This document shows, one piece after another, positions 11,323-31,479 of a DNA stretch of 64,000 nt (positions are counted from its first letter, which is position 1; the number at the start of each line of letters is the position of its first letter). Below the pieces are notes generated by a model. That model was not told the origin of the DNA and made no database searches. It saw only the letters and a program-made list of their open reading frames with translations. The translations under genes were made by a program, and so were the position numbers. The DNA is from Natrialbaceae archaeon AArc-T1-2 (GTDB lineage Archaea; Halobacteriota; Halobacteria; Halobacteriales; Natrialbaceae). Where the stretch lies: the NCBI RefSeq assembly GCF_030273315.1, contig NZ_CP127176.1:1-64000 (forward strand), given 5' to 3'.

Positions 11323-14300
11323 TCACCGATATTGGTTGATGAGGTCGCGAATGTCGTCAGAGTCTACATAGAGGCCTTGGAGCCGGGTGGTTCTGTCCGC
11401 TTCTTTCAGTAGCATGTCTCCGTCTCCACCAAGCTCCTCTGCTCCACCTTCGTCGATTAGAATTCGAGAGTCAGACTGCTTTGGAAGCCGGAAAGCTACC
11501 CGAGTGTCCAGATTAGCACGGAGGTCCGTGTCGATAGCTTCGTGTGAAGGTCGCTGGGTAGAGATGACGAGATGGATACCCTGTGCCCGTGCAATTTGGG
11601 CGATGCGGCGCACGTTGTCCTCGGTGTCGTCAGCGTCTTCTCCAAGTTGCTGGAGGAGGTCGCTGTATTCGTCGATGATGACGACGATCGGCTTCATCTG
11701 GTCATCTGGGTTCTGCTCATTGTACTCTCCGATGTCACGGCAGACGCTTTTCCGCAGCAGTTGTTTTCTATGTGGGATTTCGTCCTCGACGAGCCACTCG
11801 AACAGATCGGCAGCATCTTCGGCGTCAGTGATCACTTCGCCGTTAGAAAGGTTCGGCAGAGCATCGAAGAAGATGAAGTCAGTCTCCTTCGGATCAACTA
11901 AGGCGAACTCGACGTTGTCTTCGCCTTTCTGATCCATGAAGTTCATAATCAAGGAGTACAGGAACACGGTCTTCCCGCTGCCTGTTGCTCCGCCAACCAA
12001 CATGTGTGGTGCTTCAGAGAGGTCAGAACGGTAGACATCGCCGTCTGGTGTAACGCCTGCTAGGAAGGGTAGTGAGGATGTCTCGATCTCGTCGGACGGC
12101 TTGTACCGGTCTCTGTAGTCGCGTTGAGGTACCACGACGTTGTTCTCCCGAGGAACGTCCAGAGCTACGTACTCTGTTCCAGGCAGTCGCTGGACGATCG
12201 GTTCTTTCTCGAACGCCATTTCCCGGGCGATGTCCTCTGTCCGTTGCTCCAAGGAACTCTGTTTCTCGCCTGGTGCCAGACGGATCTTGAAGCGTACCAC
12301 GTTTGGTCCGACATCGATATCGTCGGGATCGATGTTTCGGATGTTGATCTTGAACTCGTTTAGAACCCGTTTCAGGGTTTCTACCAGGTTGGTGTATTCT
12401 TCGGGATCGCCGAACCGGTCAGCAGATTCAGTGTTGATGTCTGTCTTTTCGTCGTCACTGACGGTGTCTTCCTCTTCCCCACCGGTTTCCTCCTCGTCGA
12501 CTTCGTCCGTTTCCTCTTCGACATCCTGTTCTGGCCGTTGGTCTTCCCGGTCTTCAATGCCGCTGACAATCAGCCGCTTGATTGACTGTCGGGGAAGCTT
12601 GTCGACCCTGATGGACTGGGCGTTCGGAGTTACGCCGTCAATTCGTTCGTCCGAAGTGGCTTCGCTGGTGACTTCGACCGATACGATCCTCGGGTTGATC
12701 TCGATTTGGGCATCCCCGTTGAATACGTCGTTAATCCGGTCTGCCCACTCCTGCTTACCCTCCATCCCTTCTGCGGAGGTCAATTCGTAGTACAGTTGTT
12801 CGCGGAGAGCCTCTTTCCGGGGCGACGTGGTGAGATTTTTGTCGCCGGTGAACAGGCCGCGGATTGTGTCTGTCGTCTCGAATACTTGGTCGACGGCGTT
12901 TCCCTCCACGACCTTGGTGCCATCTTCGTCTTTGACGGTGTAGGCGCCGCTAGTTTCTTCCAGAGTCTTGATTTCGATGATGTCGAGGATAAGGCCGCCG
13001 TCATCATCGAACTGGACAGTAAGGATGTCGGCCCGGCTTTCGATGTCTCCCAGATTCAGCCATTCCCGGGTACGTGGGTTGTCGATGGAGAAGATTAGCT
13101 TGGGGTCGGCCAGCGTCTGCTGCAGCCACTGGACGGCGATAATCGAGCCAAGCAGGCCCTTTGTGTTTCTGGATTTTCCGCTGCCGAGGGTTTCCCGGGT
13201 GATGAGACGGAGAAGGCCGCTTTGTTGCAGGTCAGCGATTCTCTCCGCGATATCCTCTAAGTCGGTGTCGTCAGGCGCAAGACGGTATTCGGTGATGATG
13301 CGGCGGAGGACTCGTCGGAAGTAGTCGATATCCTCTGAGTACGTGGCGAAGTCGCGTTCGCCGCGTCGTTCTCTGGAAATCAGGTTGTCCTTCCAGAACG
13401 GGTTGCCGTTCATCGGCGGTGAGGAGATGGAGACCCAGATCGCGGAGTCGAGGAGTTCGTCGATAGTCTCCTTTTCGACGTTGAGTTCGTTGACCTCGGC
13501 GTTGTGGATGGCCTGCCGCTGATTATACAGCTGGTTGATCAGGTCCTGGTACTCGGAAAAGAGGACTCCTTCCTTCGACGGCGAGATATTGATTTTGTCC
13601 TCAAGCAGGTCGTAGTCGAACTCTTTCGGGACGTACAGCGGGTGGATTGTGGTCTCAGTATCACGCTCGAAGGTCTGGATGCTGAAGTCGCTCTGGTCGT
13701 TAATCAGAATGAAGTGCTGTGGGTCGCCTTTCAGGTCCTCGGCGTATGAGTCGTAGCTGGGATGTTCGGTTGTAACGATCTCGAACTCCCCGGAGTCGTT
13801 GTCCGGACCGAACAGGTTAGTGATATCCTCGGAGACGCTTGGTGAGGCAGTACCGTTGAGGACAGGTTTCTCTTCGTCCTCGATGAAGGCGAACTCCACT
13901 GTTGCGCCTTGGATTTCTTCTTTCTCCGCTAAGTCAGCGATATCAGAGAGGAGGTCCACAGGATCTAGGGGATCGATGACGCAGATCTTGAGGTGGCGTC
14001 GGGACGGTGGGTATGCTGACGTGAACTTGTCGAGGACGTAGTCGTAGAACTTGGAGTTCGTGCCTTCTGCAGCATTCTCGATTCGGGTGTAGACTGGTAG
14101 CCTGTCGAGTTCCGCGGATTGTACGAGATAGGTCTCATCTGCCAGTCTGTAGTTCCCGCCGACGTGGATGCTGCGGAGGACGTGTGGCTGTTCTTCGACG
14201 CTGTTGATGAGGAAGTTGCGTTCTTCCTCGGTCAGCGACTCTTTTTCGTCCTTCATCTCCCGCGCCAGTTCGGAGTACTTCCAGAGGTGGAGCGGGTGGA

Positions 14301-15891
14301 GTGGGGAAAGGACGAGTTCTCTATCGTCTTCGTATTCGAGAATGACGGTGTCGAATAGGAGGAAGTCGGAGAGAAGTTTGGAAGAGCCTTCGGAGCTAAC
14401 GTCCTGAATCTCCCGGTACTTCTTGTCCAGTTTGTCCTGAACCTCACGGTATGCCTCTATGTAGTTTTCTGCGGATTCGAGCAAGTCTTCGTCTCCGAGA
14501 AGCCGGATGAGTGGAGCGGATAGTAGTCCTGGTAGGGCATCGACGAGTTCGCTGCGAGCGGTTACGTATCGGTCGATAGATGCAACTAAGTCCTCGAATT
14601 TGCCGCTGTTCTCAGCCACTCTACGGAGTTTTTCGAAGCTGCTGTCTTCGCCTCGTGGCAGGAACTTCCCGGTTCTCAGGGCCTGGAAGTTCTTGATCGC
14701 GCTCTGCCTGTCCTCTGGGTTGTGGATGATACCACCGAAGGAGTCCTCGGTGACGAAGTGCTCAATGAAGTAGTAGAGGTCGTCGTTGACGTCGAAGGCC
14801 AACTGCTCATCCCCGGTGAACTCCATGTCGACCCGGTTTTCTTCTTCCTCTACGGCTTCTCGGTATTGGTCATCGAACTCTTCTGAAAGCCGTTCCAGTT
14901 CTTCGTCGTTGTCGTCGAAGACTGCTTCCACGCTAGCGGATTCGACGTCTCTCCGGGTGCTGGTGGTTGAACGTCGCTGGCTGGACTGGCCGGAGGTGGA
15001 GAATATCTCGTTGACCTCGTTGTACGTCAGGTCGGCAAGGATCTCCGAGTCACCGGTTCGTTCGAACCGTCGAAGCTTGGCTACGGAGTGTTCCCGTTCT
15101 TCCCTTTCGCTGTCGTCGACTTTGGTGACGCTGTTAGTGAGGCGGCGTCGATCCCTATTCGACATATGGGAGACCCGCAGCACGAGGTCCAGGTTGTCGG
15201 AAAGCCTGTCAGGGATTTCGTCGGGGTTGTTAAGCCCGGGATCGTTGAACAGCCGCAGTCTGTAGAGTTCGGTTCCAAGGGCGTCGAGTGAAGCTTGTTC
15301 TGATCCTTTGAGCGTCGAGGTTGCGTAGTCAGCAACTGCAGGGATTTCGAACCTGTCGTAGAGGTCGGAGCCAAGGGTTTCCCAGATAGCTTGGGCTGGG
15401 GGACTGTCGGCAAACTGTTTCTGGGCCTGCATCTGGTCGGTGATTTCTCGCGTGATTTCTGCCAGAGGCAAGTCGACCATACCCTCGAAATCTTTCATCG
15501 AATTCAGGCGGGCGTGATCTCCCCGAACCAGGATCACCAGTTTCTCTGGTTCAATGCGTCCGTCCCATTCGAATCCGGTGTCGGTGCCATTCCGCCAGTT
15601 GACGGCGACACTAACTTTGTCTGTGAGTCTGACGGAGGAGTCCTCTGTCCGTGACTGGAGATCGTCAATGTCTGCTTCATCGATGCTGACCATAGCGAGG
15701 CCGACATCGTACCGTGCGTTACTGCAGAGAATATCGACGAACTCCTCAGCGTCGAACCAGGGTGGCGATTCGATTATTACACCGATGTTTTCCTCGGTCA
15801 GCTGGTCGATTGTCTCGTTAGCGATTGCTTTGCCGATCAGATCCTCGTTGCTCTCGTATGAGCTGTCTTGTGTCTGTGTGGTTTCGCTCAT
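11323..15891 (-). CDS. PD-(D/E)XK-like + FtsK/HerA-type ATPase defence protein, 1522 aa
   Basis: Very large protein, fourth in the minus-strand defence operon; its ATG overlaps the previous stop (ATGA). The C-terminal ~220 residues are an FtsK/SpoIIIE-type motor: Walker A GGATGSGKT near residue 1300, Walker B VVIIDEYSDLL, and RAQGIHLVISTQRP typical of FtsK. Near residues 950-975 there is SRADILTVQFDDD followed by IIEIKT, a PD-(D/E)XK-like Asp...Glu-x-Lys pattern, so a nuclease domain may precede the motor. The long N-terminal half is unassigned, and a Glu/Asp-rich linker lies near residues 1120-1160. The overall plan resembles DptH/DndH-type and PbeABCD-associated FtsK proteins of phosphorothioate systems; that assignment is from memory. 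It probably translocates on DNA. Confidence 0.8.
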   Translation of the reverse strand: MSETTQTQDSSYESNEDLIGKAIANETIDQLTEENIGVIIESPPWFDAEEFVDILCSNARYDVGLAMVSIDEADIDDLQSRTEDSSVRLTDKVSVAVNWRNGTDTGFEWDGRIEPEKLVILVRGDHARLNSMKDFEGMVDLPLAEITREITDQMQAQKQFADSPPAQAIWETLGSDLYDRFEIPAVADYATSTLKGSEQASLDALGTELYRLRLFNDPGLNNPDEIPDRLSDNLDLVLRVSHMSNRDRRRLTNSVTKVDDSEREEREHSVAKLRRFERTGDSEILADLTYNEVNEIFSTSGQSSQRRSTTSTRRDVESASVEAVFDDNDEELERLSEEFDDQYREAVEEEENRVDMEFTGDEQLAFDVNDDLYYFIEHFVTEDSFGGIIHNPEDRQSAIKNFQALRTGKFLPRGEDSSFEKLRRVAENSGKFEDLVASIDRYVTARSELVDALPGLLSAPLIRLLGDEDLLESAENYIEAYREVQDKLDKKYREIQDVSSEGSSKLLSDFLLFDTVILEYEDDRELVLSPLHPLHLWKYSELAREMKDEKESLTEEERNFLINSVEEQPHVLRSIHVGGNYRLADETYLVQSAELDRLPVYTRIENAAEGTNSKFYDYVLDKFTSAYPPSRRHLKICVIDPLDPVDLLSDIADLAEKEEIQGATVEFAFIEDEEKPVLNGTASPSVSEDITNLFGPDNDSGEFEIVTTEHPSYDSYAEDLKGDPQHFILINDQSDFSIQTFERDTETTIHPLYVPKEFDYDLLEDKINISPSKEGVLFSEYQDLINQLYNQRQAIHNAEVNELNVEKETIDELLDSAIWVSISSPPMNGNPFWKDNLISRERRGERDFATYSEDIDYFRRVLRRIITEYRLAPDDTDLEDIAERIADLQQSGLLRLITRETLGSGKSRNTKGLLGSIIAVQWLQQTLADPKLIFSIDNPRTREWLNLGDIESRADILTVQFDDDGGLILDIIEIKTLEETSGAYTVKDEDGTKVVEGNAVDQVFETTDTIRGLFTGDKNLTTSPRKEALREQLYYELTSAEGMEGKQEWADRINDVFNGDAQIEINPRIVSVEVTSEATSDERIDGVTPNAQSIRVDKLPRQSIKRLIVSGIEDREDQRPEQDVEEETDEVDEEETGGEEEDTVSDDEKTDINTESADRFGDPEEYTNLVETLKRVLNEFKINIRNIDPDDIDVGPNVVRFKIRLAPGEKQSSLEQRTEDIAREMAFEKEPIVQRLPGTEYVALDVPRENNVVVPQRDYRDRYKPSDEIETSSLPFLAGVTPDGDVYRSDLSEAPHMLVGGATGSGKTVFLYSLIMNFMDQKGEDNVEFALVDPKETDFIFFDALPNLSNGEVITDAEDAADLFEWLVEDEIPHRKQLLRKSVCRDIGEYNEQNPDDQMKPIVVIIDEYSDLLQQLGEDADDTEDNVRRIAQIARAQGIHLVISTQRPSHEAIDTDLRANLDTRVAFRLPKQSDSRILIDEGGAEELGGDGDMLLKEADRTTRLQGLYVDSDDIRDLINQYR

Positions 15892-17390
15892 ATTTCCTCC
15901 TCGGGGACAGAGACGATGGTAACGCCGTCCGCGTATTCCTCGGCATATCCAAGACTTGATACTGCTTCTTTGAAGCCCTCGTAGTTCTGGTTGTTCAGCG
16001 GATCACTTTCGGATGCGCTGGCACCGAGGCGGATGTCCCACTCCGTCAGGTGGCTACGATCCTGTTCAGTTCCGCCCACGATGATCCCGTACCGTTCCCG
16101 GAGTTCTTCTGAGAGATCTTGGAGAGACATGCTCGTGCCTGGTTCGATTACGGAGAGTAGGATGGGTTCCAGCATCTCAGGGTCGGGCCGATACCTACGT
16201 TTGTTCGCCCGGTTCCCTCGTGGTTTAAGGATCCCGGCACGCCAGGCGAAGGTCTGGGCTGTGGACTGCGGTGTGTACGTGTCGAACCGATTCGAGAAGT
16301 CGTGGATGACGTTGCTGACAGCATCCACTAGCCTATGAAAGGTGGTATTCTTCTTGGGGTCTCGTGAGGCTCGGAATACCTGCTCGAATTTTTCGTAGTC
16401 CTGCTCAATCTTGTCCTCCTTATTCCGGTTCAGTTCCAGGAAATTATGGTTCTCGATCTCTCGGAGGACGTCTTCCTCGCTGTAGTCTTTGTAGCCCTGC
16501 AGGTCAAGGACGTGCTTGACGCCAAGCCGGGTGGCTAACTGGATCTCCGACCCGACGACGCGGAATGATTCGAGGCTGGCGTCGGCTACCGGGTTGTTCC
16601 TGGTCCCGGTGTAGTTCAGCACGATTGGGACAGGTTCGTCTTTACCCCCGTCATCCCGAATCTCATTGTGCCGGTTGGCCATGAAGACGTAGAGCAGGAA
16701 CCCGCCGAATTTGATGGTGCGGCGAAGGTCACGAGCGTAGTTCAGGTCGTAGTCGCTGTTGGAGTCCTTCAGGTGCTTCGACAGGGTTTCGAAGCCTTCG
16801 ACGAACTCATCCGCAATCTTCCCGTCCCCGAATGCGTCTCCGAGGACAGGTTCTTCCCAGGGTGAGACCGTGACGTTGCCTTTCTCTCCGTCTTTGGCGA
16901 GTGGCCGGAAAAGGAGAGAGATAGCGTCGTGGTGATCCTGAAGTTGGTCGGTCAGCTTCTGATTGATGTCGCTGTCAGATCTGTCCAGTACTGTGTAGAT
17001 GAACTGGGATGGTGTTACACCGATTCGGCGGTAGGCGACGAACCAGTTGCTCATAGAAGTCATTGCAGAGTGTTGTGGACTACTTGCGTAGAGGGCGTTG
17101 TCGTTGTCCAAGACCTTCCGCATCCTGTTCCGAAGATTGTCCATTTGTTCGTCACTGAGATCGCGGGAAGACTCGAACAGGCCGTGGTATTTCTCGTCCA
17201 AGTCGCTGGAGGGGGTTTTCCCGGGTTTCTCGACAAATTTGAACAGGTCCTCCGACTGGTGAGTGGATCCCAGGACGTTACTGAAGACGACCTGAGAGAG
17301 ATGCACCGGTTTTAGGGAGGCGGAGGTTGCTTTGAATCCGAATGCGGCTTCCGATGCATCAGAGTTTACATCGTTGAGTCTCATTGGCAT
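15888..17390 (-). CDS. Unknown protein of DUF4338/ATPase/FtsK defence cluster, 500 aa
   Basis: Third gene of the minus-strand cluster. I recognise no catalytic motif. The C-terminal ~100 residues (RRYRPDPEMLEPILLSVIEP onward) look like a winged-helix or PglZ/DptG-like accessory tail, with an ELRERYGIIVGG segment. The central part has conserved-looking hydrophobic helices (IKFGGFLLYVFMANRH). A strong Shine-Dalgarno-like GGAGGTGA precedes the ATG at 17390, and its stop overlaps the next ATG. Its fixed place between a P-loop ATPase and an FtsK-type motor suggests a structural subunit of the same complex, analogous in position to DptG. Function is inferred from context only. Confidence 0.72.
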   Translation of the reverse strand: MPMRLNDVNSDASEAAFGFKATSASLKPVHLSQVVFSNVLGSTHQSEDLFKFVEKPGKTPSSDLDEKYHGLFESSRDLSDEQMDNLRNRMRKVLDNDNALYASSPQHSAMTSMSNWFVAYRRIGVTPSQFIYTVLDRSDSDINQKLTDQLQDHHDAISLLFRPLAKDGEKGNVTVSPWEEPVLGDAFGDGKIADEFVEGFETLSKHLKDSNSDYDLNYARDLRRTIKFGGFLLYVFMANRHNEIRDDGGKDEPVPIVLNYTGTRNNPVADASLESFRVVGSEIQLATRLGVKHVLDLQGYKDYSEEDVLREIENHNFLELNRNKEDKIEQDYEKFEQVFRASRDPKKNTTFHRLVDAVSNVIHDFSNRFDTYTPQSTAQTFAWRAGILKPRGNRANKRRYRPDPEMLEPILLSVIEPGTSMSLQDLSEELRERYGIIVGGTEQDRSHLTEWDIRLGASASESDPLNNQNYEGFKEAVSSLGYAEEYADGVTIVSVPEEEI

Positions 17391-17396
17391 CGGTGT

Positions 17397-18956
17397 TCAC
17401 CTCCGCTCCATCTGGTACCGATCATCGTTGACTGACAGGATCTCGAGTTCGCCGGTTTCCGTGTCCATAATGTGGATGGTGCCGTAGTCCTCATCGTGGC
17501 TTTCCCTGTATTCGATTTCCTCCATAAACTCTAGCAACTGCTGTTCTTCCTCCCTGCCACGTAGAATGTAAGGAATATTGCCTTCCAAAGCACCGAGTGT
17601 CTCGGATAGATCTGGATCGATCCGGAGTCTGACTGATGAGTCTCGGCCTTCGTATTCGAGGACGTGGTGGTCGTGATTGTAGTCCATTGCATCGCTGATT
17701 TCGGGATGGAGCTGCGGGACTCGGCGATTCAACTCGCGTTTAGGGATTTCTGTCCGGGAAATAAGGGATAGGGAGCTTTTAGATCGATAGTTGTGGGAGA
17801 GCCAGACTCGGAGATCGGAACCTTTGGAAGAATCCGGCATGAAATAGCTGTTAATCATCTCTATGACGTCCTCTTTCACGCTTTCGTCCGAACGGTCCCT
17901 GTTCCGCTGGTTATGGAAGGAGTAGTTGGTCTCGTGATAGAGGTCGCGAGCGTCGTAGTCGTTGATGGCTACGTCCTCAAAGTAGAACTGACGTTTCTTC
18001 TCGATGAATCGCTGGTCGACTTCTTCTTCTGAGTCGTCTTCGTCTCTTCGTGAAACCTCTTCTTCAGCGTCTGCCCAGAGTTTGCTGTCGATGAATGGAT
18101 GGGTGAGATCGCGGGGATGGAAGTATTCGTTCAGGAGGGTGAAGATCTGCCCACTGCCACTGAACGCGAGGTTGTAGTATTTCAGATCTTCGTCAAAGTC
18201 GGTGACGCTCTCTTCTTTGGCTCCGGTGATACAATAGGCGAGAAAGTTCAGGAGGTCACGGACGGTGACGTGGGCGTCCAGATGACCGACGGACTGTAGG
18301 AGTCGGATGATATTTTCTCGGACACGATCATTCCTCATCTTGTCCATGTTATAGGCGATGTGTCCGTGGATGTCGTCGCCGTTGTTCTCTTTCAGGAACT
18401 TGTTCGAGGTCAAGTTCTCGATGGCCTGGCCGATGACCTTGCGCGTGAGGATGTTCCTGTTATTGAGGTCGATGACGACGATAGAGTCGAAGTCAGCGTT
18501 GTCGGCTTGTCCTTCGCCGTAGATGATCTGATTCTGGAACTGGCTTCGAACGTTTTCCAAGAAGGGATAGTCGTCGGCGTGCTGGGTGGTCATCTCGTAA
18601 AGAGGGCCGTCGTTGATAGCGAGGATACCAGGTCGGCCGTCGTCAAGGGCGTCTTTCCATTTGTCGAGTAGGACAGTGTAGTCGTCGTACTCGGAGGCAT
18701 CAGAGAGATAGAAATAGTTCGGCTCCGGGTACTCGGGCTTCATCTGCAGGATGTACTGTGTTTTCCCGTCTCCAGGGTTCCCGGTGAGAACGACCTGCTT
18801 CCCGTCTTTCAGTGCGTCTTGTAGGTATTCCTCACCGTCCAAGCGGGTTGTTATATGTATCTCTCTGCGTTGCTCGTCGGTGAGCTGTTCAGCGAACCCT
18901 CCCTGTGCCAGCTGTGAAAGGAATCGTAGATTCAGTGTCGATGCTTCAATTCCCAT
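17397..18956 (-). CDS. P-loop ATPase of defence cluster (DptF-like), 519 aa
   Basis: AAA/STAND-like ATPase. Walker A GNPGDGKTQYIL lies at about residues 57-68, LAINDGPLYEM near 110, and DSIVVIDLNNRNIL is a Walker B-like strand near 160. The rest is helical and acidic. The combination of a short N-terminal arm, a GxxGDGKT P-loop and the LAIN-G-L motif resembles DptF, the ATPase of phosphorothioate-dependent restriction, and related defence ATPases. It is second in the operon, 39 bp after the DUF4338 gene and 6 bp before the 500-aa gene. The predicted role is an ATP-dependent switch or loader for the FtsK/nuclease partner. DptF kinship is plausible but unverified. Confidence 0.78.
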   Translation of the reverse strand: MGIEASTLNLRFLSQLAQGGFAEQLTDEQRREIHITTRLDGEEYLQDALKDGKQVVLTGNPGDGKTQYILQMKPEYPEPNYFYLSDASEYDDYTVLLDKWKDALDDGRPGILAINDGPLYEMTTQHADDYPFLENVRSQFQNQIIYGEGQADNADFDSIVVIDLNNRNILTRKVIGQAIENLTSNKFLKENNGDDIHGHIAYNMDKMRNDRVRENIIRLLQSVGHLDAHVTVRDLLNFLAYCITGAKEESVTDFDEDLKYYNLAFSGSGQIFTLLNEYFHPRDLTHPFIDSKLWADAEEEVSRRDEDDSEEEVDQRFIEKKRQFYFEDVAINDYDARDLYHETNYSFHNQRNRDRSDESVKEDVIEMINSYFMPDSSKGSDLRVWLSHNYRSKSSLSLISRTEIPKRELNRRVPQLHPEISDAMDYNHDHHVLEYEGRDSSVRLRIDPDLSETLGALEGNIPYILRGREEEQQLLEFMEEIEYRESHDEDYGTIHIMDTETGELEILSVNDDRYQMERR

Positions 18957-18995
18957 ATTTATCGTTGGTGTTGGTGACCGAATGTTCCCGCCATG

Positions 18996-21113
18996 TTAAC
19001 TGTTGCTTATAATGAACTCACTGAGACTGGCTTGTCGTTTGTCGAAATCGATCTCGCTGCTCAATTTGAATTCTTGCTTGTCAAATCCCCTAATATTCTC
19101 CAAGACATCTTGTTTCTGAACTCTCATGCTTGCCCACCGATCGATCCAGTACTGGTAGATTGACTCCTGTTCTTTCTGTGGGTCGTCGAACTCCCAGTAG
19201 TATTCTGGGTTGTCGTCGATTCCAAGCAGGTAGTCTTGGGAGTTCTCCGCCAGATCGATTCCGTACACAATCCGCCTGGACTCGTGTTTCAATAGGTCAG
19301 TCTCTAAACCGCAGTTCGTCAGACCGCGCCGGATTTTCCGGATTCGAGGAGAGACACCTTCTCCGAACCGACCTCTGACGACCTTGCGACCCTCCTCTAA
19401 CTGTGTGACTTGGCTAAGCCGTTTCCGTGTCTCGGGGCCGAACTGGATTGAACCGTAGCCTTCAGTGTACCCGATCTGGTTGTATTCGATTTGTCCGTTT
19501 TTGTTTGGAACCCGGATACGGTCGTACTGGGCACTTCCGATCTCGAACAGGCCGGTGGTGTCGAGGAAAACCAGTTCGTTCGGTTTACTCACTGCTTCGC
19601 CTTTCATCGAACTGGCGATTTCGCTCTGATAGTCGCCGTACTTGTCTTGGTACATGTTAATGACCTTGGGACCGGTCAACGCCATCGCCACGAGTTTCCC
19701 ACCGAGGATACGGTTGTAGGGAGGGATAGCGCCGCAAACCATAATGTTCATCATGCCGGCCCCGACCCTCTCCTTCTTGATCTCCTTCAGGGCGGTTTTG
19801 ATGGCTCGCCGTCCAGAGTCGTTGTTCAAACCGGTTCTGATGAACTCGACATCGTCTTCGTCGCTGTGTTCTTGGAAGTATTTCCGGTCACGGAGAAGTT
19901 TTTGAAGCGCCCGAGCCCGTTTTTTCCGGAACAGGGCTGTCTCACTTTTTCTCTCCCAGTCTTCCATCTTCTCAGGGTTCTCGTCCTCGCCTCCTTCGAT
20001 CGTCTGTTCAGCTTCCTCTTCTATCTCCTCGAGTATCTCGAGAACTCGTTCATCCGGGTTGACGAAGCTTTCATCGGAGAGTTCTAGATGTTCCTCGGCG
20101 AAGTCGTCATACCGGATGTTGGATATCGCGTTCTCGATGGAGTTCTCCAGAGCCTCTCGTATATCAGAGCAAAACTCGTTGATCCGCTCTTCATACTCTT
20201 CCTCAGTTTCTAGCCATTCCGTGTTGGTGACTGACCGAGTCTTCTTGTCAGGCGTCTGCTTCTCCTCTGGTAGTTGTTCCTCGTATTCATGGACCCGTTT
20301 CTTCCGCTGCAGTTTATTTTCGACTGCGTCGATCGTCCAGCCGATGTGGTTATCCCTGACTGACAAGTTCATCATAGGGCTTGCTATCGTCGCAATCCCC
20401 ATCACTGGATCTTTCGGCTTAGCTCCATTTCTAATAAGGAAATTGATGTTTCTTCCGGGGACCGTATTGTATGGTGTCAACCAAGTATAGCGGAAGTACC
20501 GCCAGATATCCATCAAATCCAACTCGGTGTGTTCGCACTTCTTCCCTCTCTCTACTTTCTGTATGTAGGGTTGAACAACACTTTCTAGATCTTCGGCTAT
20601 TGTATCTTGACTCTGATCCTGAAGTGGGGCTAAGTCCTGGTAGAGTTCTTTCCCACCAGTTATTAGTTCAAGGACGCTTCGCCCGCCATTGGTGTTTCGA
20701 CGGGTGTCACGCTCCATTTTCCGAACGAACTCACGGACGCTTTCCTCTCTGAATTGCGCCCGTCGTTCCTTTTGGAGGATAGTTCTCTCTTGTTCTTTGA
20801 ATTGCTCTGGGTCGTCCTTGTAGCGATCCGGGTCTGGACGAACGACGTGTAATTCGGAGTTTTTTCGGATGTCATAGTTGATCTCAATGAGGTCCAGAAG
20901 AACTTCTAACGCTGCGAGATATCGAATCTGGCCTTCAGTTATCCCATCCTCAATTTCGCTCTCAATATAGCGAATCTCGTCTTTGATGGCAACCTCCCGG
21001 TCGAGATCTTCCTGAAATTCGATCAGTTCATCAGTGAGAGCCTCAAATCGCCGTTGGTACTGGCCTGGGAGATCGGGCGAAAAATCCACTTCTCGTTCAG
21101 AATTCGCACCCAT
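18996..21113 (-). CDS. DUF4338 (DruA-like) protein, 705 aa
   Basis: First gene of the minus arm of the defence island. Residues about 205-270 and 470-650 match the DUF4338 pattern known from Druantia DruA: YTWLTPYNTVPGRNINFLIR, MGIATIASPMMNLSVRDNHIGW, then PYNRILGGKLVAMALTGPKV and QYDRIRVP. The central region is a charged insert, rich in Glu and Lys. The start is the ATG at 21113 (MGANSERE); a TTG start at 21152 is less likely. The biochemical role of DruA is not settled; a DNA-binding or nuclease-like role has been suggested. Here it heads a cluster that otherwise resembles DptF/G/H or PbeABCD, and it diverges from an operon with a DruE-like helicase. Confidence 0.82.
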   Translation of the reverse strand: MGANSEREVDFSPDLPGQYQRRFEALTDELIEFQEDLDREVAIKDEIRYIESEIEDGITEGQIRYLAALEVLLDLIEINYDIRKNSELHVVRPDPDRYKDDPEQFKEQERTILQKERRAQFREESVREFVRKMERDTRRNTNGGRSVLELITGGKELYQDLAPLQDQSQDTIAEDLESVVQPYIQKVERGKKCEHTELDLMDIWRYFRYTWLTPYNTVPGRNINFLIRNGAKPKDPVMGIATIASPMMNLSVRDNHIGWTIDAVENKLQRKKRVHEYEEQLPEEKQTPDKKTRSVTNTEWLETEEEYEERINEFCSDIREALENSIENAISNIRYDDFAEEHLELSDESFVNPDERVLEILEEIEEEAEQTIEGGEDENPEKMEDWERKSETALFRKKRARALQKLLRDRKYFQEHSDEDDVEFIRTGLNNDSGRRAIKTALKEIKKERVGAGMMNIMVCGAIPPYNRILGGKLVAMALTGPKVINMYQDKYGDYQSEIASSMKGEAVSKPNELVFLDTTGLFEIGSAQYDRIRVPNKNGQIEYNQIGYTEGYGSIQFGPETRKRLSQVTQLEEGRKVVRGRFGEGVSPRIRKIRRGLTNCGLETDLLKHESRRIVYGIDLAENSQDYLLGIDDNPEYYWEFDDPQKEQESIYQYWIDRWASMRVQKQDVLENIRGFDKQEFKLSSEIDFDKRQASLSEFIISNS

Positions 21114-21335
21114 AGTAATTTGGTTAACGTAGCAAATCGTTGTCTGCTGCAATTCAAAAGAGTATCGACTCGACTCAGGTCAGACCCCTAGACGGTCTAG
21201 CAAAACGAGCCATAATTATTTGATATATAATATGTGCGCATTTATTCAATAGGTTTAAATTATGTGTCGCTCAGGATTGATAACATATGAGTAAGGGAAC
21301 TATCAGGAATAGAATTGGCGGCCTTCAGATCACCC
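21114..21335. promoter_or_regulatory. Divergent promoter region of the defence island
   Basis: A 222-bp AT-rich spacer between the two arms, with TTTGATATATAATATG and GGTTTAAATTATG on the plus strand. The TTTAAAT box lies about 30 bases before an ATG at 21287 that opens an 18-codon frame ending TAA at 21341-21343. That stop overlaps the GTG at 21336, which I take as the start of the next gene. This could be a coupled leader peptide or a chance frame. A shared control region for both arms is inferred. Confidence 0.5.
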
Positions 21336-22790
21336 GTGAGTAAACTTTCTATCCCTTTCGGGCTTGATCCAGGGGGTACAAAAACTCCGATCGAAGAGGC
21401 ACAACGGAAAACAGACTACTATCGATGCCCAGAATGTGGTGAGTTCCTAACCCCTCGGATTGGCTCTCAACGCCAGTATTTCGCTCACAAGCAAGGCGTC
21501 CTGGAGGACATTTCCTGTTCACTCTCCAGTGACGAGGGTGTCGAAAAGATGATCCAGGATCTCCGTACTTCGGACATCGAAGAGGATGAACGTCAGCGGT
21601 CAATTCGAACCTATCTCGGTCAACGATATGATGGCGGAATCGAATTATTTGGCATCGTTCCTTCACTCGATTGGGACCAAATCCAAGAAGATGAGGACGT
21701 AGACACGCTCTTAGAAAAGGTCGAAATCGAGGCAGAGGGAATTACACATCCACCTGTACCCAGTAACTTCCACCCATCGGAGGCAGAGGTCACGCTTGAT
21801 CTCGATCCAACAGCAAACAGTTACGAACTCCAAATCACAGGTCCAGATGCCCTCGGAAGTATCACCGGCACTTGGACTACTTCAGGGCTCCAACACGGTA
21901 ATCTCTTTGTTGGTGATGAAACTCGGGCGCAACGATATAACTCGGATCACCAGGTGCGCAAAGATATGTGGGTATATTTGGTCTCAAAGAATCCCCCAAA
22001 ATCCGAAGTGTCGTTCGTTGATGTCTACGACTTCGCGGATGTATCCTTAGTCGGGTTCCGGGCATCCGAAAAGACGGAGCCTTTTCTCGACCGCTATGGG
22101 GGAGGCCTTAGTACAGAAAACTACGGCTTCGATGCTGACGTTGTATTACCCGCACACACAAACCCAACCGTTGAGGCACCCCTATACGCACCACCAGAGG
22201 AACCAGTTCTCGTCGGAGTTACTCCCTCCGAGGAAGTCGACCCAATATTCGAGGTCGTTTCCATCCCCAAAGATGCAAACGAGACAGTCGAAATCGACCG
22301 GACTGGAGCGGGAAATCCTCGTTACTACACAACTGAGGTACCTTCTGATGGATCGCGCCGTGTGAGTATCCACCAGCGGAACTCCGATCGGCATCGTCTG
22401 ATCCACCTCCACCCATCCGAAGAATCGACGATCATAGACGCTACCGAGCCAGAATCACGGCGAATTGGTATTGAAATCCAAGATGAGGAACACCGTGAAT
22501 TTCTCTCACCTATCGAAGGCCCGTCTTCGAAGCGTATGCCCGTTGGTTTCAATCCTCATTTATTACATACCAACCTCGAATATGTCGGGCCAGAAGACCT
22601 CGAACTGGAAGTAATCGCTACATTTGCTGAAGGCGCATCGCTCGGTCCGACAATCAGCCGAGACGTAACAGCAATCAGTGACATTATCTCGGAGGTCGTC
22701 CACTGGGTAGAGAGCGGCTGTAATGAACTCGAGATCCGGTTCAATGGTATTGGAACTATATCGATCTGCTTTCCGCAGGGGGAACAATGA
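21336..22790 (+). CDS. Zinc-finger protein with CoiA-like N-terminus, 484 aa
   Basis: First gene of the plus arm. Near residues 27-58 it has YRCPECGEFLTPRIG followed by QYFAHKQG, the same Cys-x-x-Cys ... Phe-x-His finger that opens CoiA proteins, and then a further Cys (ISCSLS). No Asp...Glu-x-Gln nuclease core follows, so this is not a complete CoiA. The rest is beta-rich and acidic, with no recognised domain. The start is uncertain: GTG at 21336 is chosen because it sits next to the TATA-like spacing and after a short leader frame; a TTG at 21315 is possible. It overlaps the next gene by ATGA. A targeting or adaptor role for the helicase/nuclease pair downstream is plausible. Confidence 0.72.
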   Translation: MSKLSIPFGLDPGGTKTPIEEAQRKTDYYRCPECGEFLTPRIGSQRQYFAHKQGVLEDISCSLSSDEGVEKMIQDLRTSDIEEDERQRSIRTYLGQRYDGGIELFGIVPSLDWDQIQEDEDVDTLLEKVEIEAEGITHPPVPSNFHPSEAEVTLDLDPTANSYELQITGPDALGSITGTWTTSGLQHGNLFVGDETRAQRYNSDHQVRKDMWVYLVSKNPPKSEVSFVDVYDFADVSLVGFRASEKTEPFLDRYGGGLSTENYGFDADVVLPAHTNPTVEAPLYAPPEEPVLVGVTPSEEVDPIFEVVSIPKDANETVEIDRTGAGNPRYYTTEVPSDGSRRVSIHQRNSDRHRLIHLHPSEESTIIDATEPESRRIGIEIQDEEHREFLSPIEGPSSKRMPVGFNPHLLHTNLEYVGPEDLELEVIATFAEGASLGPTISRDVTAISDIISEVVHWVESGCNELEIRFNGIGTISICFPQGEQ

Positions 22791-24613
22791 GTCTGGAACC
22801 CGGTGACGAGTTTACAGCGGAAGTAGACAAGATTACGAAACGGAGAACTTGCACCGTCAAATACGATGGGGAAGGGATTAATATCGGCCCAGTCACGTGC
22901 GAACCCGGTCGTTCGGTTCGATTGCGGTATCTCGGGGCAGATTCAGTCGCTGGAACATCGATACATTTCGCACTTTGTCTGACCGAGGAAGTTCTCGCGG
23001 ACGATTACAAAGATCACATTCGACGCCATGTAAGCGGCCTTCTTCCTGACCAACCTCCACAAGAGGGAGAACAAACCTACATAGAGGTGGATAAGATCGA
23101 CGAGTACGGCCTCGGACTCGCAGTTGCCGGAGGTGAAGTCGTCGAACTCGGACCAGTACAAGCAGACGAGGGCGACTTAGTACACGTTGTCGGACGCGAA
23201 CCGGGATATGCAGAGATTCTGAACGCAAGAGCACGTGGGAAACGCTACAGGATTCGCTTCAATATTCTCCGTGAGCGCTGGGACAAACTCCCTATCAAAA
23301 AGGGCGAGTCATTCACGGCAACGATAGATGACACTGATGGCAATAATCTCATCGCGTATGTGGACGGGTTGCCTGTCCACTTCTCTGGAGGCAAAGCCCG
23401 AATCGGACAAAAAATCGAAGGGAAACTCATTAGATTTCACCGAGACCGCGGAGTTGGCAAAGTGACAAAGGTCTATGATTCGGTTGGTGATATCGAAGAC
23501 CACGGGCACGATACTCGGATGCAGCAACTTCAGCAAGCGGGATTCGGCCAAGAACCGTTTCGTGCATTTGCTACGCAGTTTACTGGCGTGAGTGGTGACC
23601 AACTACCATCGACTGAGATCGGTATCCGAGACGCCATAGTCGGTGAGGCAATCCGACTCGGTCTTGCTGAGAAAGCTGAATCGGGTGGCCAACAGTATCC
23701 ACAAGCACACATCACCGCAATCCGCCACTGGGTTGTCCATAAGCTGGCAGCTGTTCTCGGACAGCCAGTCACTGGTGCCGACGAAGTATCCGATGATGTC
23801 GGGTGGTTTCGGGCAGCATTAACAGAGCGTACCGGCCCCACAATCACGTTCCTCGGTGATGTGATCCAACTCTCACAAGGGTACTATGCTCCAGCACCGA
23901 CGCGATCTGTAATGATCTCCGAATCTGAGGCCGTGCTCGTTTCAGGGGATCCAAGTCGTCCATTCATAGAGTCCGGTCTTGATATCGAATTTCGGGGGTT
24001 GACGCGGATTCTTACTGACACCAGTGAAGCAGAATTGCGTTCGAGAGAAATCCCCGTTCAATCTAAAGACGAATACATCGGTCTGGACGAGGCGCCGATT
24101 ACGACGCCAGCCACACTACGTGAGTACATCGAACAGCGACCGCAGGAGTCGTGGGAACCGGAGGAAGATTGGGCACCATACACTGGACAGTACTATGGAT
24201 TTACCGTAGACGGTGAGCCGCTCGTCATTGAAGAGGCAGACGGAACTGCGATCAGCTTGTGGCGAGTTCCAGTCGAATACGGCGCCGATACCTACCAGTT
24301 AAAGGTTCAATCGGGCGACGACAAAACAAGGGCCGTCACTGTTTCGCCGAAATACCGCAAGCATGCGTGCCTAATCCTTGACTCAATGGCTGAAGACCCA
24401 CAGACAGTTGAACTCACCGCATATGACGAGGAGGTCTTATTAAGTTGTGACTTTGCACCGCCGCGGGCACAGATGCGTTGGCTGTACGCAGTCGGAGCAG
24501 AGTGGCTTGAAACATCGTCGTATCAACTTCAATGGCGAATTTCGGACACCGATGCTGATTCAGTGCGAGAGGTCTTCGACGAACTGCCCGTGACCATCAT
24601 CGATAATACATAA
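22787..24613 (+). CDS. Protein with three N-terminal OB/TRAM-like domains, 608 aa
   Basis: The N-terminal ~235 residues contain three similar beta-barrel repeats of 60-75 residues, each starting with a strand such as EFTAEVDKI, TYIEVDKID or SFTATIDDT and holding a G-x-V/R core; they look like OB or TRAM folds, which bind nucleic acid. A middle region (about residues 330-390) has TGPTITFLGDVIQLSQGYY followed by APAPTRSV, a Pro-Ala-Pro-x-Arg motif. The C-terminal third is beta-rich. The gene overlaps its predecessor by ATGA and ends one base before the helicase ATG, so it is co-translated with the helicase. It is likely a DNA-binding subunit that hands substrate to the helicase. I do not recognise a named family. 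Confidence 0.75.
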   Translation: MSLEPGDEFTAEVDKITKRRTCTVKYDGEGINIGPVTCEPGRSVRLRYLGADSVAGTSIHFALCLTEEVLADDYKDHIRRHVSGLLPDQPPQEGEQTYIEVDKIDEYGLGLAVAGGEVVELGPVQADEGDLVHVVGREPGYAEILNARARGKRYRIRFNILRERWDKLPIKKGESFTATIDDTDGNNLIAYVDGLPVHFSGGKARIGQKIEGKLIRFHRDRGVGKVTKVYDSVGDIEDHGHDTRMQQLQQAGFGQEPFRAFATQFTGVSGDQLPSTEIGIRDAIVGEAIRLGLAEKAESGGQQYPQAHITAIRHWVVHKLAAVLGQPVTGADEVSDDVGWFRAALTERTGPTITFLGDVIQLSQGYYAPAPTRSVMISESEAVLVSGDPSRPFIESGLDIEFRGLTRILTDTSEAELRSREIPVQSKDEYIGLDEAPITTPATLREYIEQRPQESWEPEEDWAPYTGQYYGFTVDGEPLVIEEADGTAISLWRVPVEYGADTYQLKVQSGDDKTRAVTVSPKYRKHACLILDSMAEDPQTVELTAYDEEVLLSCDFAPPRAQMRWLYAVGAEWLETSSYQLQWRISDTDADSVREVFDELPVTIIDNT

Positions 24614-24614
24614 T

Positions 24615-27600
24615 ATGAAATCAATCAAAGAAGTCTCGGAAGAGCTCGAGAACGATCTTCAACAGTACATCGAATCACGTTACCACCTCCATCACCCGCG
24701 GCTTCTCAAGGAACGTCGTGCCCTGATGGACGAGGGAGAGACAGCCACCGAACCATGGGTCGAGGCAACACCGACCTATGTTTCGGGTGAACCCCTCAGA
24801 GAATTGGGCCTGCCGAGCGAAGTTGTCGATTTGTTAAAAGATCTCGAAAGCGACGATCTCAACATCTTCGATCCGCCGTACAAACATCAGGCCGACGCCC
24901 TCCAATCGTTCTTCAACGAAGAGGACGATCTCATCGTATCCACCGGAACAGGGTCCGGAAAAACCGAGATTTTCCTCTACTCAATTCTGGGTCAGCTCGC
25001 CCAAGAGGCAGCGCGAGGAGAGACAGCTGACCAACGTGGGATACGGACATTAGTTCTCTATCCGATGAACGCCCTCGTCGCGGATCAACTCTCCCGGATG
25101 CGCCTACTCTTTGGTGACAAGGACGGGGCAGATACACTTGAGGACTACATGGGCCGGCGTGTACAGTTCGGGATGTACACGAGTCGTACACCCTATCACG
25201 GGGAGTACGACAAGAGTAAGAACGATAATCTGGTCAAGCCGGTCATCAATCGGTATCTCAAGTTAGAGGAAGAACAGCCGGACCTCTACGAACAACTCAA
25301 AGAAAAAGGCCGTATTCCAGCCAAGGATCTCGAAGGGTTCCGGAACAAGAATAAGAAAAAGGAGACTCACTTCCGTACTCAACCTGGCGACACCGAACTG
25401 TTCACGCGTCAGGAGATGCACACCCGCGATGGAAGCAATCCCCATGGCGGGACGCCGGATCTCCTGATCACGAACTATTCAATGCTGGAGTATATGCTAC
25501 TCCGGCCGATCGAACAACCCCTCTTTGAGGATACCCGTGAATGGCTGGCCGAGGACGAAGAGAACGAGCTGAATATCGTCCTTGACGAAGCTCACCTCTA
25601 CCGAGGCGCCCAAGGAGCAGAGGTGGCGCTCCTGTTGAGCCGCTTGCTCCAGAAACTCGGGATATCTCGCGAACGTGTGCGCTTCATTCTCACGAGTGCG
25701 ACGATGGGTGAAAACGTAGAGGAAGCAGCCCCAGACTTTGCGGCCCAGCTCACAACCGGAGATCCGGACGATTTCTCAGTAATCACCGGTGAGCAGGTGG
25801 AGTACGAAGGCGGAGAACCGAGCGAGAAACGCATGGCGCAACTCCTAGAGCGAATTGGCTACCAACTCGATGATCCATCGAAGATTCGCAACGTTGCGAG
25901 CGAACGAGGCTGGGATCCTCTTGAAAGTGATGACGTAGAATCGATCCGTTCGTACCTTGCTGACCAGTTAGTCGATGACCCACTCTTCAGGTTAGCACAC
26001 GAACACCTTCGTGAAGAGCCACTGCGCCTATCGGCGCTTGCCGAAGAGTTGTTCGAGGACATCGATCAGGATCTGGCTCGTGAGGCGACGGGCAATCTTC
26101 TGTATCTTTGTACCGAGGCCCGCCAGGGAGAGGACCAGGCGTTGCTTCCGACGCGCCTGCATATGTTCCTCAAAGGGCTCCCCGCCCAGTATGCGTGTGT
26201 CAATCCTGAATGCAGCGGCCGCCGGGTTACAGAGGGAGAGAACCTCCTCGGGCGCATCTACAGTAATCCGCACACGACCTGTGAGTCCTGTGGCAGTCGT
26301 GTCTTCGAACTGATTAGCCACCGCACCTGTGGAGCAGCATATCTGCGCGCGTATCGACGCTCTGACGACGACCGCGGGCCGACGTTCCTGTGGTCAGATC
26401 CTGAGAGCAGCGAGGACTTGGACGAACTTCATCTCTTAGTTGAGGAACCTCGGGATGACCCAAATCCAGACCACGAACACGGCCGTTCGCTCGCCGAGAC
26501 GACGACCTCACGAAACCTCTCGATTGCCTCCGGCCATCTTGTTGATGATCGGCACGTGGACGACGAAGGGGCGACCACTCATATCGAGGTTCAGGTCCCG
26601 ACTAAAGAGCCGCCGAACGAGGACGGTGCGTGGAGTTGGACTCAATGTCCGGCGTGCGGGATCAAAGAGCGACGCCGTCCGAATGGCGACACGAAGGTCG
26701 AAGATCTGGTCACCAAAGGTGAGGAGCCATTCGCGCACAGCGTCCGCTCGATGTTCGGTATCCAGCCGACCGACCCACTCAAAGAGGAGTTCCCCAACGA
26801 GGGGCGCAAGGTATTGTGCTTCTCTGACGGTCGACAGAAGGCGGCCCGCTTAGCTCGCGATCTCCAATCGAACGTTGAATCCGACTCGTTCCGCGAGGTT
26901 CTAACCGACATTTTTGGATCCGCGGACGGTGAAATCACGATGGATCGGTTGTTCGCCGAGTTCGCAGTCTACTGTGCGAAAAACAACATCGTATTCTTCG
27001 ACGACAGCGACCAATACACGAATCAGTCGGGCGTCGTGTATAAGGGTTCACGCTCCCACTTCGAAGATATTCGTGGGAACCTGTCCGACATTGTCGATGA
27101 GTACTACCTTGAGTCCATCGACGATATTCCGGAGGTGCCAGCCGCACGCAATGCGTTGTCGGAGCGTCCCCGCCAGTATGAGGAACTTCTCCTCCGATCG
27201 TTGGGCGATGAACAGTACTCCATCACCGGCGCTCTCGTCGGGTACATTGCGCCGTCCGAGGAGGTATTTGAGAAAATCGATGAAGCCGTCCCTGAAATTG
27301 AGACAGACCAACTCAAGAGCATCCTCATCGAGGCGCTTCGTCATGCCTGCGAGGAACGGGCATTTGATTCAAATATTGAAGCCAGACGACGTTCGAACTC
27401 CTATCCCTATCAAAATTGGATTGACCCGGACGATACAGGGCTCCCCCACAGCGAAATAATCCCTGAATATGTTGTAGAATCACTCGACGACGAAGTGCCA
27501 GAAGAGGCGTGGTATAGTCTGAGACGGGCGTTGATGACGACAGAGCCTGTGTTGTTTGGGGCCTCCCACGGCAATTACTTCGTCAATCCGAAAGCAACGA

Positions 27601-30042: not shown

Positions 30043-30906
30043 ATGGATGGGTCAGAACAGTTTGCGCACGTAAACTGGTCGGCGTCGGCAGCACAGCTGT
30101 TCGAAGAGTGCCCCCGGCGGTTCTTTTATCGATACCAACATACCGAGTCTACCGAGGACTATAGTGAGGATACACCGTCGCCAGGGGCCTATCTGGGAAC
30201 TGTCGTACACGAATCTCTCGCGGGGCAGGTTGCACGATGGGCTCGGGGTGAGAACATCCATCTCCAGACTGCAACCGATTATGCGAAAGACGAACTTGAG
30301 AGATATGTCGAAGCGAATACTGAGACGATTGCAGATCGGATTGACGATACGGATGGGAAAGCCTTCGATAGCGATTCCTTCACGCGGTCATTAGTTCGTA
30401 CAGCCCGAAATCACATCAGGCAGTTCTTCCGGGTGATTTGGCCCCATCTTGAGGACCACCGCTATATCGCCCACGAAACGCGCCAAACGTTCGAAGTTTC
30501 CGAAGAACCCGTCACCGTCCAACCAGATCTCTGTACTCGAAACCCAGAGGGAGACTTTGTCGTTACTGACTGGAAGACAGGTTCGTATGACCGGTTCAGT
30601 AACCCGACAATACAGATGCAAGCATATGCGCTCTATGCTCACGAAGCGTATGAACCCGAACTCAGTCGGATTCGGATCCAATTAGCCCATACTGGAAGTG
30701 GGGAGTTCGACCGAATGGTGCCGACCACGGAAGACATGAGACAGATCCGAGACCGGATTACGAATGATAGGGCCTTCTGGACAAGTAAGGGAGACATCGA
30801 ATCCTACAAGACAAATCCAGCGGTCCAGAAGTGTAGCCAATGTTCGTACCTTCACCGGTGTACAGATGGACAAAACGTCACGGGTGAAGAGCCAGAACCA
30901 AACTAA
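30043..30906 (+). CDS. RecB/Cas4-like PD-(D/E)XK nuclease with Cys cluster, 287 aa
   Basis: Exonuclease-type protein of the RecB/AddB/Cas4 superfamily. SASAAQLFEECPRRFFYRY is the N-terminal helix with the first Cys, LGTVVHESL supplies the His, QPDLCTRNPEGDF gives an Asp near 159, VVTDWKTG gives Asp176 and Lys178, and QMQAYALYA is the Q-x-x-x-Y motif. The C-terminal CSQCSYLHRC provides three Cys that, with the N-terminal one, could hold a 4Fe-4S cluster. The start is the ATG at 30043, 4 bases after the helicase stop; a longer frame upstream overlaps the helicase end and lacks similarity. It is the last gene of the plus arm. It probably degrades DNA unwound by the neighbouring helicase. Confidence 0.88.
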   Translation: MDGSEQFAHVNWSASAAQLFEECPRRFFYRYQHTESTEDYSEDTPSPGAYLGTVVHESLAGQVARWARGENIHLQTATDYAKDELERYVEANTETIADRIDDTDGKAFDSDSFTRSLVRTARNHIRQFFRVIWPHLEDHRYIAHETRQTFEVSEEPVTVQPDLCTRNPEGDFVVTDWKTGSYDRFSNPTIQMQAYALYAHEAYEPELSRIRIQLAHTGSGEFDRMVPTTEDMRQIRDRITNDRAFWTSKGDIESYKTNPAVQKCSQCSYLHRCTDGQNVTGEEPEPN

Positions 30907-30978: not shown

Positions 30979-31479
30979 TCAATCACGCAATTGATAAATC
31001 CACTTGCGACGAACAAAATCGTCAACTGAGGACCGGCCTTCGCGCGACTGCCAACTATCACCTTGGGCGTTCTCTTCCCGAGCTAGCTTGAAACCCGCCG
31101 CGGAATAAATCGTCCCCTTGTTACCTGCTACTCCAGCGTGAGCAGAGATCCGTTGATACCCCTCTAAGAACGCCCACTTTCGGGCGCAAGCGATAAGCCA
31201 CGAACCCGTGTTTGATGGTCTTTCAGGTCGCGATCCGAACCGCGTAATTGAGATTTCTTTATTTTCATCGACCATTCGAGCCACAGGTCGGCCGAGAACA
31301 CAGACTGCAATTAGATTAGACTCATAACGAGCTCCGAAAGCAGCTTTCCATCCAGGGATACCTCCCAATTTGTGGTCTACCATATCCGACTCGAGGAAAT
31401 CGTTGATCTCATTTCGGCTTCGCTCTCGGGTTAGTTTGAGATTCGATACAGAGTCAGGTACTGATATTGGATCTTTCAT
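30979..31479 (-). CDS. GNAT-like (XF1762/Mom-type) protein, 166 aa
   Basis: Small GNAT-superfamily-like protein. The pattern GWKAAFGARYESNLIAVCVL / GRPVARMVDENKEISITRFG / GSWLIACARKWAFLEGYQRI / GVAGNKGTIYSAAGFKL follows phage and plasmid XF1762-like acetyltransferases, to which the Mom DNA-modification proteins are related. It is convergent with the plus arm of the defence island (72-bp gap) and transcribed toward it. If Mom-like, it could modify DNA bases; if an ordinary GNAT, it could acetylate a protein or metabolite. I cannot tell these apart by eye. No partner (such as Com) is visible. Confidence 0.65.
   Translation of the reverse strand: MKDPISVPDSVSNLKLTRERSRNEINDFLESDMVDHKLGGIPGWKAAFGARYESNLIAVCVLGRPVARMVDENKEISITRFGSRPERPSNTGSWLIACARKWAFLEGYQRISAHAGVAGNKGTIYSAAGFKLAREENAQGDSWQSREGRSSVDDFVRRKWIYQLRD

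What the first reader, a model, noticed from the sequence alone, without database searches (positions are those of the whole stretch)
11323..21113. Phosphorothioate-type effector cluster without modification genes
The DUF4338/ATPase/500-aa/FtsK quartet looks like the interference half of a PT-based system (four genes, as in PbeABCD), yet no DndCDE, Ssp or other sulfur-modification gene, nor any methyltransferase, is present in 64 kb. Either the modification genes lie elsewhere, the quartet senses something else, or it works with the helicase arm. This would alter how self and foreign DNA are told apart.
Basis: inference. Interest (0 to 1): 0.7.

Follow-up and report, generated by a model that had tools for sequence, protein, structure and literature searches.

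The report
Two-armed archaeal antivirus gene cluster
The four genes are a DNA-translocating, DNA-cutting module best known from sulfur-marked DNA defence, but in these salt-loving archaea they travel with a Druantia-type helicase arm and usually a small gene related to a phage DNA-marking enzyme, and no sulfur-marking gene was found.

Summary
The quartet exists as described: DruA (DUF4338), an SspF/DndF-type ATPase, an SspG/DndG-type protein and an SspH/DndH-type nuclease-FtsK. It is not PbeABCD-like. It is one arm of an eight-gene locus; the divergent arm is Druantia type I-like (CoiA-like, DruD-like, DruE, Cas4/AddB-like nuclease). In 391 haloarchaeal genomes DruE (9) occurs only where the quartet (11) occurs, and the linkage survives a rearrangement from divergent to convergent arms. 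dndC occurs in 18 of the 391 genomes, none with the quartet; the host has neither dndC nor an SspD-like gene. In bacteria DruA and F are fused, followed by G and H, without DruE. So no PT partner was found.

Mom proteins modify adenine in DNA. It lies beside the helicase arm in 8 of 9 DruE+ genomes (partial in one) and in Natribaculum; the exception, G128, has a D12 adenine methyltransferase 1.3 kb beyond H. A base mark is a live hypothesis, unproven (about 0.3-0.35). Both structure predictions failed (pLDDT 56, 43). Verdict: a new combination of known defence modules; PT reading not supported, helicase-arm reading supported.

The parts
18996..21113 (-). DruA (DUF4338), long form, 705 aa; ATG at 21113
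   Evidence: PADLOC DruA 6e-148, Pfam DruA 5e-34; start matches annotated relatives
17397..18956 (-). SspF/DndF-like P-loop ATPase, 519 aa
   Evidence: PADLOC SspF 2e-15, DndF 7e-7; GNPGDGKT, INDGPL and VIDLNN motifs invariant in 9 haloarchaeal copies
15888..17390 (-). SspG/DndG-like protein, 500 aa (also resembles MAD7)
   Evidence: PADLOC SspG 2.5e-12; NCBIfam MAD7 2.8e-7
11323..15891 (-). SspH/DndH-like protein, 1522 aa: PD-(D/E)XK core (D955, E973, K975) plus FtsK-alpha and FtsK motor
   Evidence: PADLOC SspH 1.6e-67 over the C-terminal motor; Pfam FtsK 1e-32, FtsK_alpha 3e-12; nuclease motif invariant from archaea to Hymenobacter
21336..22790 (+). CoiA_N zinc-domain protein, about 484 aa (GTG start); possible DruB counterpart
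   Evidence: Pfam CoiA_N 2e-5; hhalign to a DruB over 33 residues only, E 3e-4; conserved in 10 of 10 DruE loci
22787..24613 (+). DruD-like protein, 608 aa (similarity in the C-terminal part)
   Evidence: PADLOC DruD 7e-6; hhalign to a DruD over 228 columns, E 7e-5
24615..30038 (+). DruE, YprA-family DUF1998/MZB helicase, 1807 aa
   Evidence: PADLOC DruE1 1569 bits over the full length; Pfam DEAD and MZB
30043..30906 (+). Cas4/AddB-like PD-(D/E)XK nuclease, 287 aa (ATG at 30043)
   Evidence: Pfam PDDEXK_1 3e-23; PD...DWK and a Cys pattern conserved in all 6 copies aligned
30979..31479 (-). Mom-like/XF1762 family, 166 aa: candidate DNA adenine modification enzyme
   Evidence: phrog_1384 Mom-like 3e-12, NCBIfam XF1762_fam 3e-14 above cut-off, Pfam Mom 2e-4 below cut-off; beside the DruE arm in nearly all loci
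21114..21335 (.). Divergent intergenic region (222 nt) between the two arms, presumably the promoters
   Evidence: gene coordinates; divergent order in 8 of 10 two-arm loci

Best explanation
The quartet is half of one composite antivirus locus that joins two known machines: a DruA-SspFGH/DndFGH module and a Druantia type I-like helicase arm. Shown: gene content, cross-species linkage, catalytic motifs, absence of dndC and of an SspD-like gene in the host. Inferred: F (ATP-binding) and G dock the H protein on DNA; H translocates with its FtsK motor and cuts or nicks with its PD-(D/E)XK domain; DruA acts with F, because bacteria fuse the two. DruE loads on exposed single strands of replicating or cut DNA, and the Cas4/AddB-like nuclease supplies the cleavage that type I DruE is thought to lack. 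Self-DNA is not marked by phosphorothioate. More tentatively, the Mom-like neighbour may acylate adenines to mark self (about 0.3-0.35), with a D12 adenine methyltransferase in its place in one lineage. The confidence given is for the composite, non-PT system, not for the mark.
For: Family assignments. G is found in exactly the 11 of 391 genomes that have DruA; DruE in 9 of these and 0 of 380 others, Fisher p 1e-16. Both arms together at 57-98% DruE identity, divergent in 8 loci and convergent in 2. Bacterial DruA-F fusions followed by G and H. Invariant nuclease and Walker motifs. dndC in 18 of 391 genomes, none with the quartet, and none in any quartet neighbourhood. PAPS-reductase-type genes: the two in the host and the strongest extra hits in three other quartet genomes were read and are CysH-like or tRNA-thiolation-like, not DndC/SspD. 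Mom-like gene in 8 of 9 DruE+ genomes and 17 of 382 others, p 7e-10. D12 methyltransferase near the cluster in G128.
Against: No function was tested. The quartet occurs without DruE (G026, Halobaculum litoreum, Hymenobacter, two viral-collection contigs), so it can probably act alone. Most two-arm loci are 85-98% identical recent relatives; there are only about four independent lineages, so the p-values overstate independence. The zero overlap with dndC is expected by chance 59% of the time. The Mom-like gene is on the strand opposite to the helicase arm in the window, is partial in G148, absent in G128 and not seen at quartet-only loci; direct comparison with Mu Mom was not significant. Similarity of the H protein to SspH outside the motor and nuclease was not shown. 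Methyltransferases exist elsewhere on the chromosome.
Confidence: 0.75

Rival explanations
1. No DNA mark is used. The two arms recognise infection-specific DNA structures (ssDNA, branched or moving DNA) or viral nucleotides, as proposed for Druantia III and for standalone DndFGH; the Mom-like gene is a plasmid anti-restriction passenger. (This differs from the best explanation only in the self/non-self step.)
For: Druantia III has no modification gene and its DruE is reported to engage ssDNA-containing intermediates (PMC13192584); DndFGH is reported as standalone and often decoupled (PMC10853773); quartet-only and bacterial loci show no Mom-like gene nearby; Mom in phages protects the phage's own DNA.
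Against: Best Mom-like copies (above 330 bits) are found only beside this locus, and the association holds in Natribaculum, where the gene lies at the other end of the helicase arm; SspFGH without its mark damages host DNA (PMC8092258), so a relative might need a self-mark.
Confidence: 0.42
2. A true PT-dependent effector, with the modification genes in another replicon or acquired in trans.
For: F, G and H resemble SspFGH, an experimentally PT-dependent effector (PMC8092258).
Against: Host genome 99% complete without dndC; none of 11 quartet genomes has dndC; the PAPS-reductase-type genes that were read are ordinary; no dndC near any quartet.
Confidence: 0.04
3. Self is marked by a chromosomal methyltransferase in trans.
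For: All 11 quartet genomes have at least one PF01555 or PF02384 methyltransferase; G128 has a D12 enzyme beside the cluster.
Against: No one family is universal: G317 lacks PF01555; G026, G128 and G281 lack PF02384; the cluster moves between genera on plasmids, which disfavours dependence on a resident enzyme.
Confidence: 0.12
4. Two independent defence systems that merely sit side by side in a defence island on a recently spread plasmid.
For: Quartet alone exists in archaea and bacteria; most two-arm loci are near-identical.
Against: DruE never found without the quartet in 391 genomes; linkage kept through arm rearrangement at about 57-65% identity in Natribaculum; DruA itself is a Druantia I component.
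Confidence: 0.2

Closest known systems
SspFGH (SspABCD-SspFGH, PMC8092258) and DndFGH (PMC10853773)
   Same: ATPase F, G protein and a large H protein with a PD-(D/E)XK core and FtsK motor, in that gene order; DUF4338 domain reported fused to some DndF proteins, as in the bacterial loci here
   Different: DruA is a separate gene in archaea; no dndC or SspD-like gene found; joined to a DruE helicase arm
Druantia type I (DruABCDE)
   Same: DruE1-type helicase full length, DruA, a DruD-like protein
   Different: No DruC match; DruB only hinted at by a CoiA-type zinc patch; carries FGH and a separate nuclease; arms divergent, not one operon
PbeABCD (PMC6459918)
   Same: Four-gene archaeal cluster linked to defence
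   Different: All four proteins belong to other families; no Pbe match in the quartet
MADS (methylation-associated defence)
   Same: G resembles MAD7 and H resembles mad8
   Different: No methyltransferase in the window; other MADS parts not found among the ten locus proteins scanned
Mom-restriction pairs (PMC7824862)
   Same: Mom-family enzyme next to DNA-cutting proteins; jumbo-phage Mom domains are reported fused to endonuclease domains
   Different: Here a free-standing small gene beside an SspFGH-type effector and a Druantia helicase in archaea

Membership tests
SspFGH/DndFGH | Homologues of F, G and H in one operon | tested here: met
   SspF 2e-15, SspG 2.5e-12, SspH 1.6e-67; all four quartet genes present together in all 12 haloarchaeal loci compared
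SspFGH/DndFGH | F motifs: Walker A, ND after strand 2, Asn near Walker B | tested here: met
   GNPGDGKT, INDGPL and VIDLNN invariant against the description in PMC10853773
SspFGH/DndFGH | Nuclease plus HerA/FtsK motor in H | tested here: met
   D955...E973-x-K975 and FtsK domain
SspFGH/DndFGH | Full DndH domain series in the N-terminal 900 residues | tested here: inconclusive
   AlphaFold model of residues 560-1130 unusable, pLDDT 43; N-terminal half not folded
SspFGH/DndFGH | Coupled PT-modification genes (dndCDE or sspBCD) | tested here: not met
   dndC absent from all 11 quartet genomes and from quartet neighbourhoods; SspB and SspC not searched
SspFGH/DndFGH | PT dependence of activity | not testable with these tools
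   needs mass spectrometry and plaque assays
Druantia type I | DruE1 helicase | tested here: met
   PDLC00013 full length, 1569 bits
Druantia type I | DruA | tested here: met
   6e-148
Druantia type I | DruD | tested here: inconclusive
   7e-6 over 78 residues; hhalign 7e-5 over 228 columns
Druantia type I | DruB and DruC | tested here: not met
   No PADLOC match in any of the ten locus proteins; only a 33-residue patch to DruB
PbeABCD | HKD-helicase, small protein, CxC ABC-ATPase, DndE-like protein | tested here: not met
   No PbeB, PbeC or PbeD match; only a generic helicase match of DruE to PbeA at 3e-4
MADS | Linked methyltransferase | tested here: not met
   No methyltransferase of four families on the contig
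Mom family (window 30979-31479) | Profile match to the family holding Mu Mom | tested here: met
   phrog_1384 3e-12; Mu Mom matches the same family at 8e-84
Mom family (window 30979-31479) | Direct similarity to Mu Mom | tested here: inconclusive
   hhalign E 0.066, within the range of shuffled controls
Mom family (window 30979-31479) | Adenine acylation in DNA | not testable with these tools
   needs nucleoside mass spectrometry

The most novel reading that the evidence does not exclude
A restriction-modification-like antivirus system in archaea that marks its own DNA with a bulky Mom-type acyl group on adenine and attacks unmarked DNA with a DruA-SspFGH translocase-nuclease working together with a Druantia helicase-nuclease arm.
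Probability: 0.3. Interest if true: 0.82.

Novelty: new variant of a known kind. Interest (0 to 1): 0.58.

Why it matters
It ties two defence families that are described separately, Druantia and the DndFGH/SspFGH effectors, into one locus, and offers a test of how an SspFGH-type nuclease spares its own genome without phosphorothioate. If the Mom-like neighbour is the mark, DNA momylation would be a self-mark for cellular immunity and not only a phage shield. In the held literature searched, no paper names Druantia, DndFGH and FtsK together; the library is incomplete.

Tried and rejected
PbeABCD identity: rejected by family composition (PMC10853773). Hidden dnd or SspD genes in the genome: rejected for dndC and for the PAPS-reductase genes that were read. 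Cytosine methyltransferase in the genome: none. GmrSD and the second CoiA-like gene (7689-11300) as core parts: the pair is seen in only 3 loci. AlphaFold of DruA and of H residues 560-1130: pLDDT 56 and 43, so no fold searches were run. Solved-structure search: only FtsK-type hits for H, nothing useful for F, G, DruA. Viral-collection search with the H protein: no confirmed relatives, although H homologues lie in contigs found through DruA. Equating F or G with DruB or DruC: no support.
Full report
Observation. The four minus-strand genes at 11323-21113 are real, tightly packed (spacings -4, 6, 39 nt) and intact. Profile searches give DruA for the first (PADLOC 6e-148, Pfam DruA 5e-34), SspF/DndF for the second, SspG for the third and SspH with FtsK for the fourth. 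The comparison with PbeABCD is not: those proteins are an HKD-helicase, a small protein, a CxC ABC-ATPase and a DndE relative (PMC6459918, PMC10853773), and none of their models matches the quartet.

Surroundings. A 222-nt divergent gap separates the quartet from a plus-strand arm: a CoiA_N zinc-domain protein, a DruD-like protein, a full-length DruE1 helicase (1569 bits) and a Cas4/AddB-like PD-(D/E)XK nuclease. Next to it, on the other strand, lies a 166-aa gene of the XF1762/Mom-like family.

Distribution. Of 391 haloarchaeal genomes, 11 have DruA and the same 11 have G; 9 of them have DruE, and no genome has DruE without the quartet (Fisher p 1e-16 and below). In Natribaculum the quartet proteins and DruE are 57-65% identical to the window's. 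Quartets without DruE occur in G026, in Halobaculum litoreum (two copies, both broken) and in bacteria. The bacterial versions (Hymenobacter and IMG/VR contigs) have DruA and F fused in one frame, followed by G and H, which agrees with the report that a DUF4338 domain is fused to some DndF proteins (PMC10853773). Most archaeal loci are 85-98% identical, so there are only about four independent lineages and the p-values overstate the case.

Modification genes. dndC (TIGR03183) is in 18 of the 391 genomes and in none of the 11 with the quartet; by chance that overlap would be zero 59% of the time, so the point is absence of linkage, not avoidance. A tblastn with 18 dndC proteins found none near any quartet, with a positive control. 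The PAPS-reductase-type genes of the host and the strongest extra ones in three other quartet genomes were read: they are about 323-aa CysH-like proteins or a tRNA-thiolation-like protein (these two names rest on my reading of the sequences). The same genes in the remaining quartet genomes were listed but not read. SspB and SspC were not searched. The host contig has no PF01555, PF02384, PF00145 or PF02086 methyltransferase; the host chromosome has PF01555 and PF02384 members.

The Mom-like gene. It matches phrog_1384 at 3e-12, the family in which Mu Mom scores 8e-84, and NCBIfam XF1762_fam above its cut-off; Pfam Mom is below cut-off, and a direct profile comparison with Mu Mom is not significant. 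It occurs in 25 of 391 genomes, in 8 of 9 with DruE against 17 of 382 without (p 7e-10). All copies scoring above 330 bits lie beside this locus. In most loci it is convergent with the nuclease gene; in Natribaculum it is intact and lies upstream of the CoiA-like gene. In G148 only its end is recognisable, near the contig edge. G128, the one DruE genome without it, has its only D12 adenine methyltransferase about 1.3 kb beyond H, next to a transposase-like frame; this is a single case noticed after the fact. Published work describes Mom enzymes as adenine acyltransferases and notes Mom domains fused to endonuclease domains in jumbo phages (PMC7824862).

Mechanism. Shown: conserved catalytic motifs in F, H, the nuclease and the helicase. 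Inferred: F and G load H; H translocates and cuts; DruA works with F; DruE processes exposed single strands as reported for Druantia III (PMC13192584); the separate nuclease does the cutting that type I DruE is predicted to lack (PMC12458937). Known behaviour of SspFGH, which damages host DNA when its mark is missing (PMC8092258), makes a self-mark plausible, but standalone DndFGH and Druantia III argue that none may be needed. I put the unmarked reading at about 0.42 and the Mom mark at about 0.3 to 0.35.

Structure. Both AlphaFold jobs gave low confidence (pLDDT 56 for DruA, 43 for H residues 560-1130), so I ran no fold searches and draw nothing from them; a GNAT fold for DruA rests on the literature alone.

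Verdict. A new combination of known modules: a DruA-SspFGH/DndFGH effector coupled to a Druantia I-like helicase arm, usually with a Mom-like gene. Not a member of Pbe; not a PT system on present evidence; not a complete Druantia I either.

Noticed in passing
window 42751-43668 and 43668-46244: HamA (Pfam 1e-29) followed by a DEAD-box helicase gene: a Hachiman-type defence pair on the same replicon.
   Followed up: no
window 7689-10130: GmrSD-type type IV restriction protein (DUF262) with a CoiA-like gene (10194-11300) just downstream of H; the pair is shared with two other loci.
   Followed up: partly
window 934-2013, 2176-3426, 10194-11300: Three zinc-domain or CoiA-like genes in one replicon that cluster together by sequence.
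   Followed up: no
L022 and L035 (Halobaculum litoreum plasmid): Two copies of the quartet on one plasmid, both with frameshifts or stops.
   Followed up: partly
L030:49-1173: Weak Piwi-domain match (0.004) near the quartet-only locus of G026.
   Followed up: no
L155-L156 (G295): A mid-scoring Mom-like gene (222 bits) lies in a region that also holds a GmrSD-type restriction gene about 7 kb away.
   Followed up: partly
L136, L137, L139-L146: Mom-like domains in longer frames of about 300-600 aa in other haloarchaea, suggesting fusions with other domains.
   Followed up: no
window 36813-38297 and 3474-4967: Cdc6/Orc-type initiator and an integrase-like gene, consistent with a mobile plasmid.
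   Followed up: no
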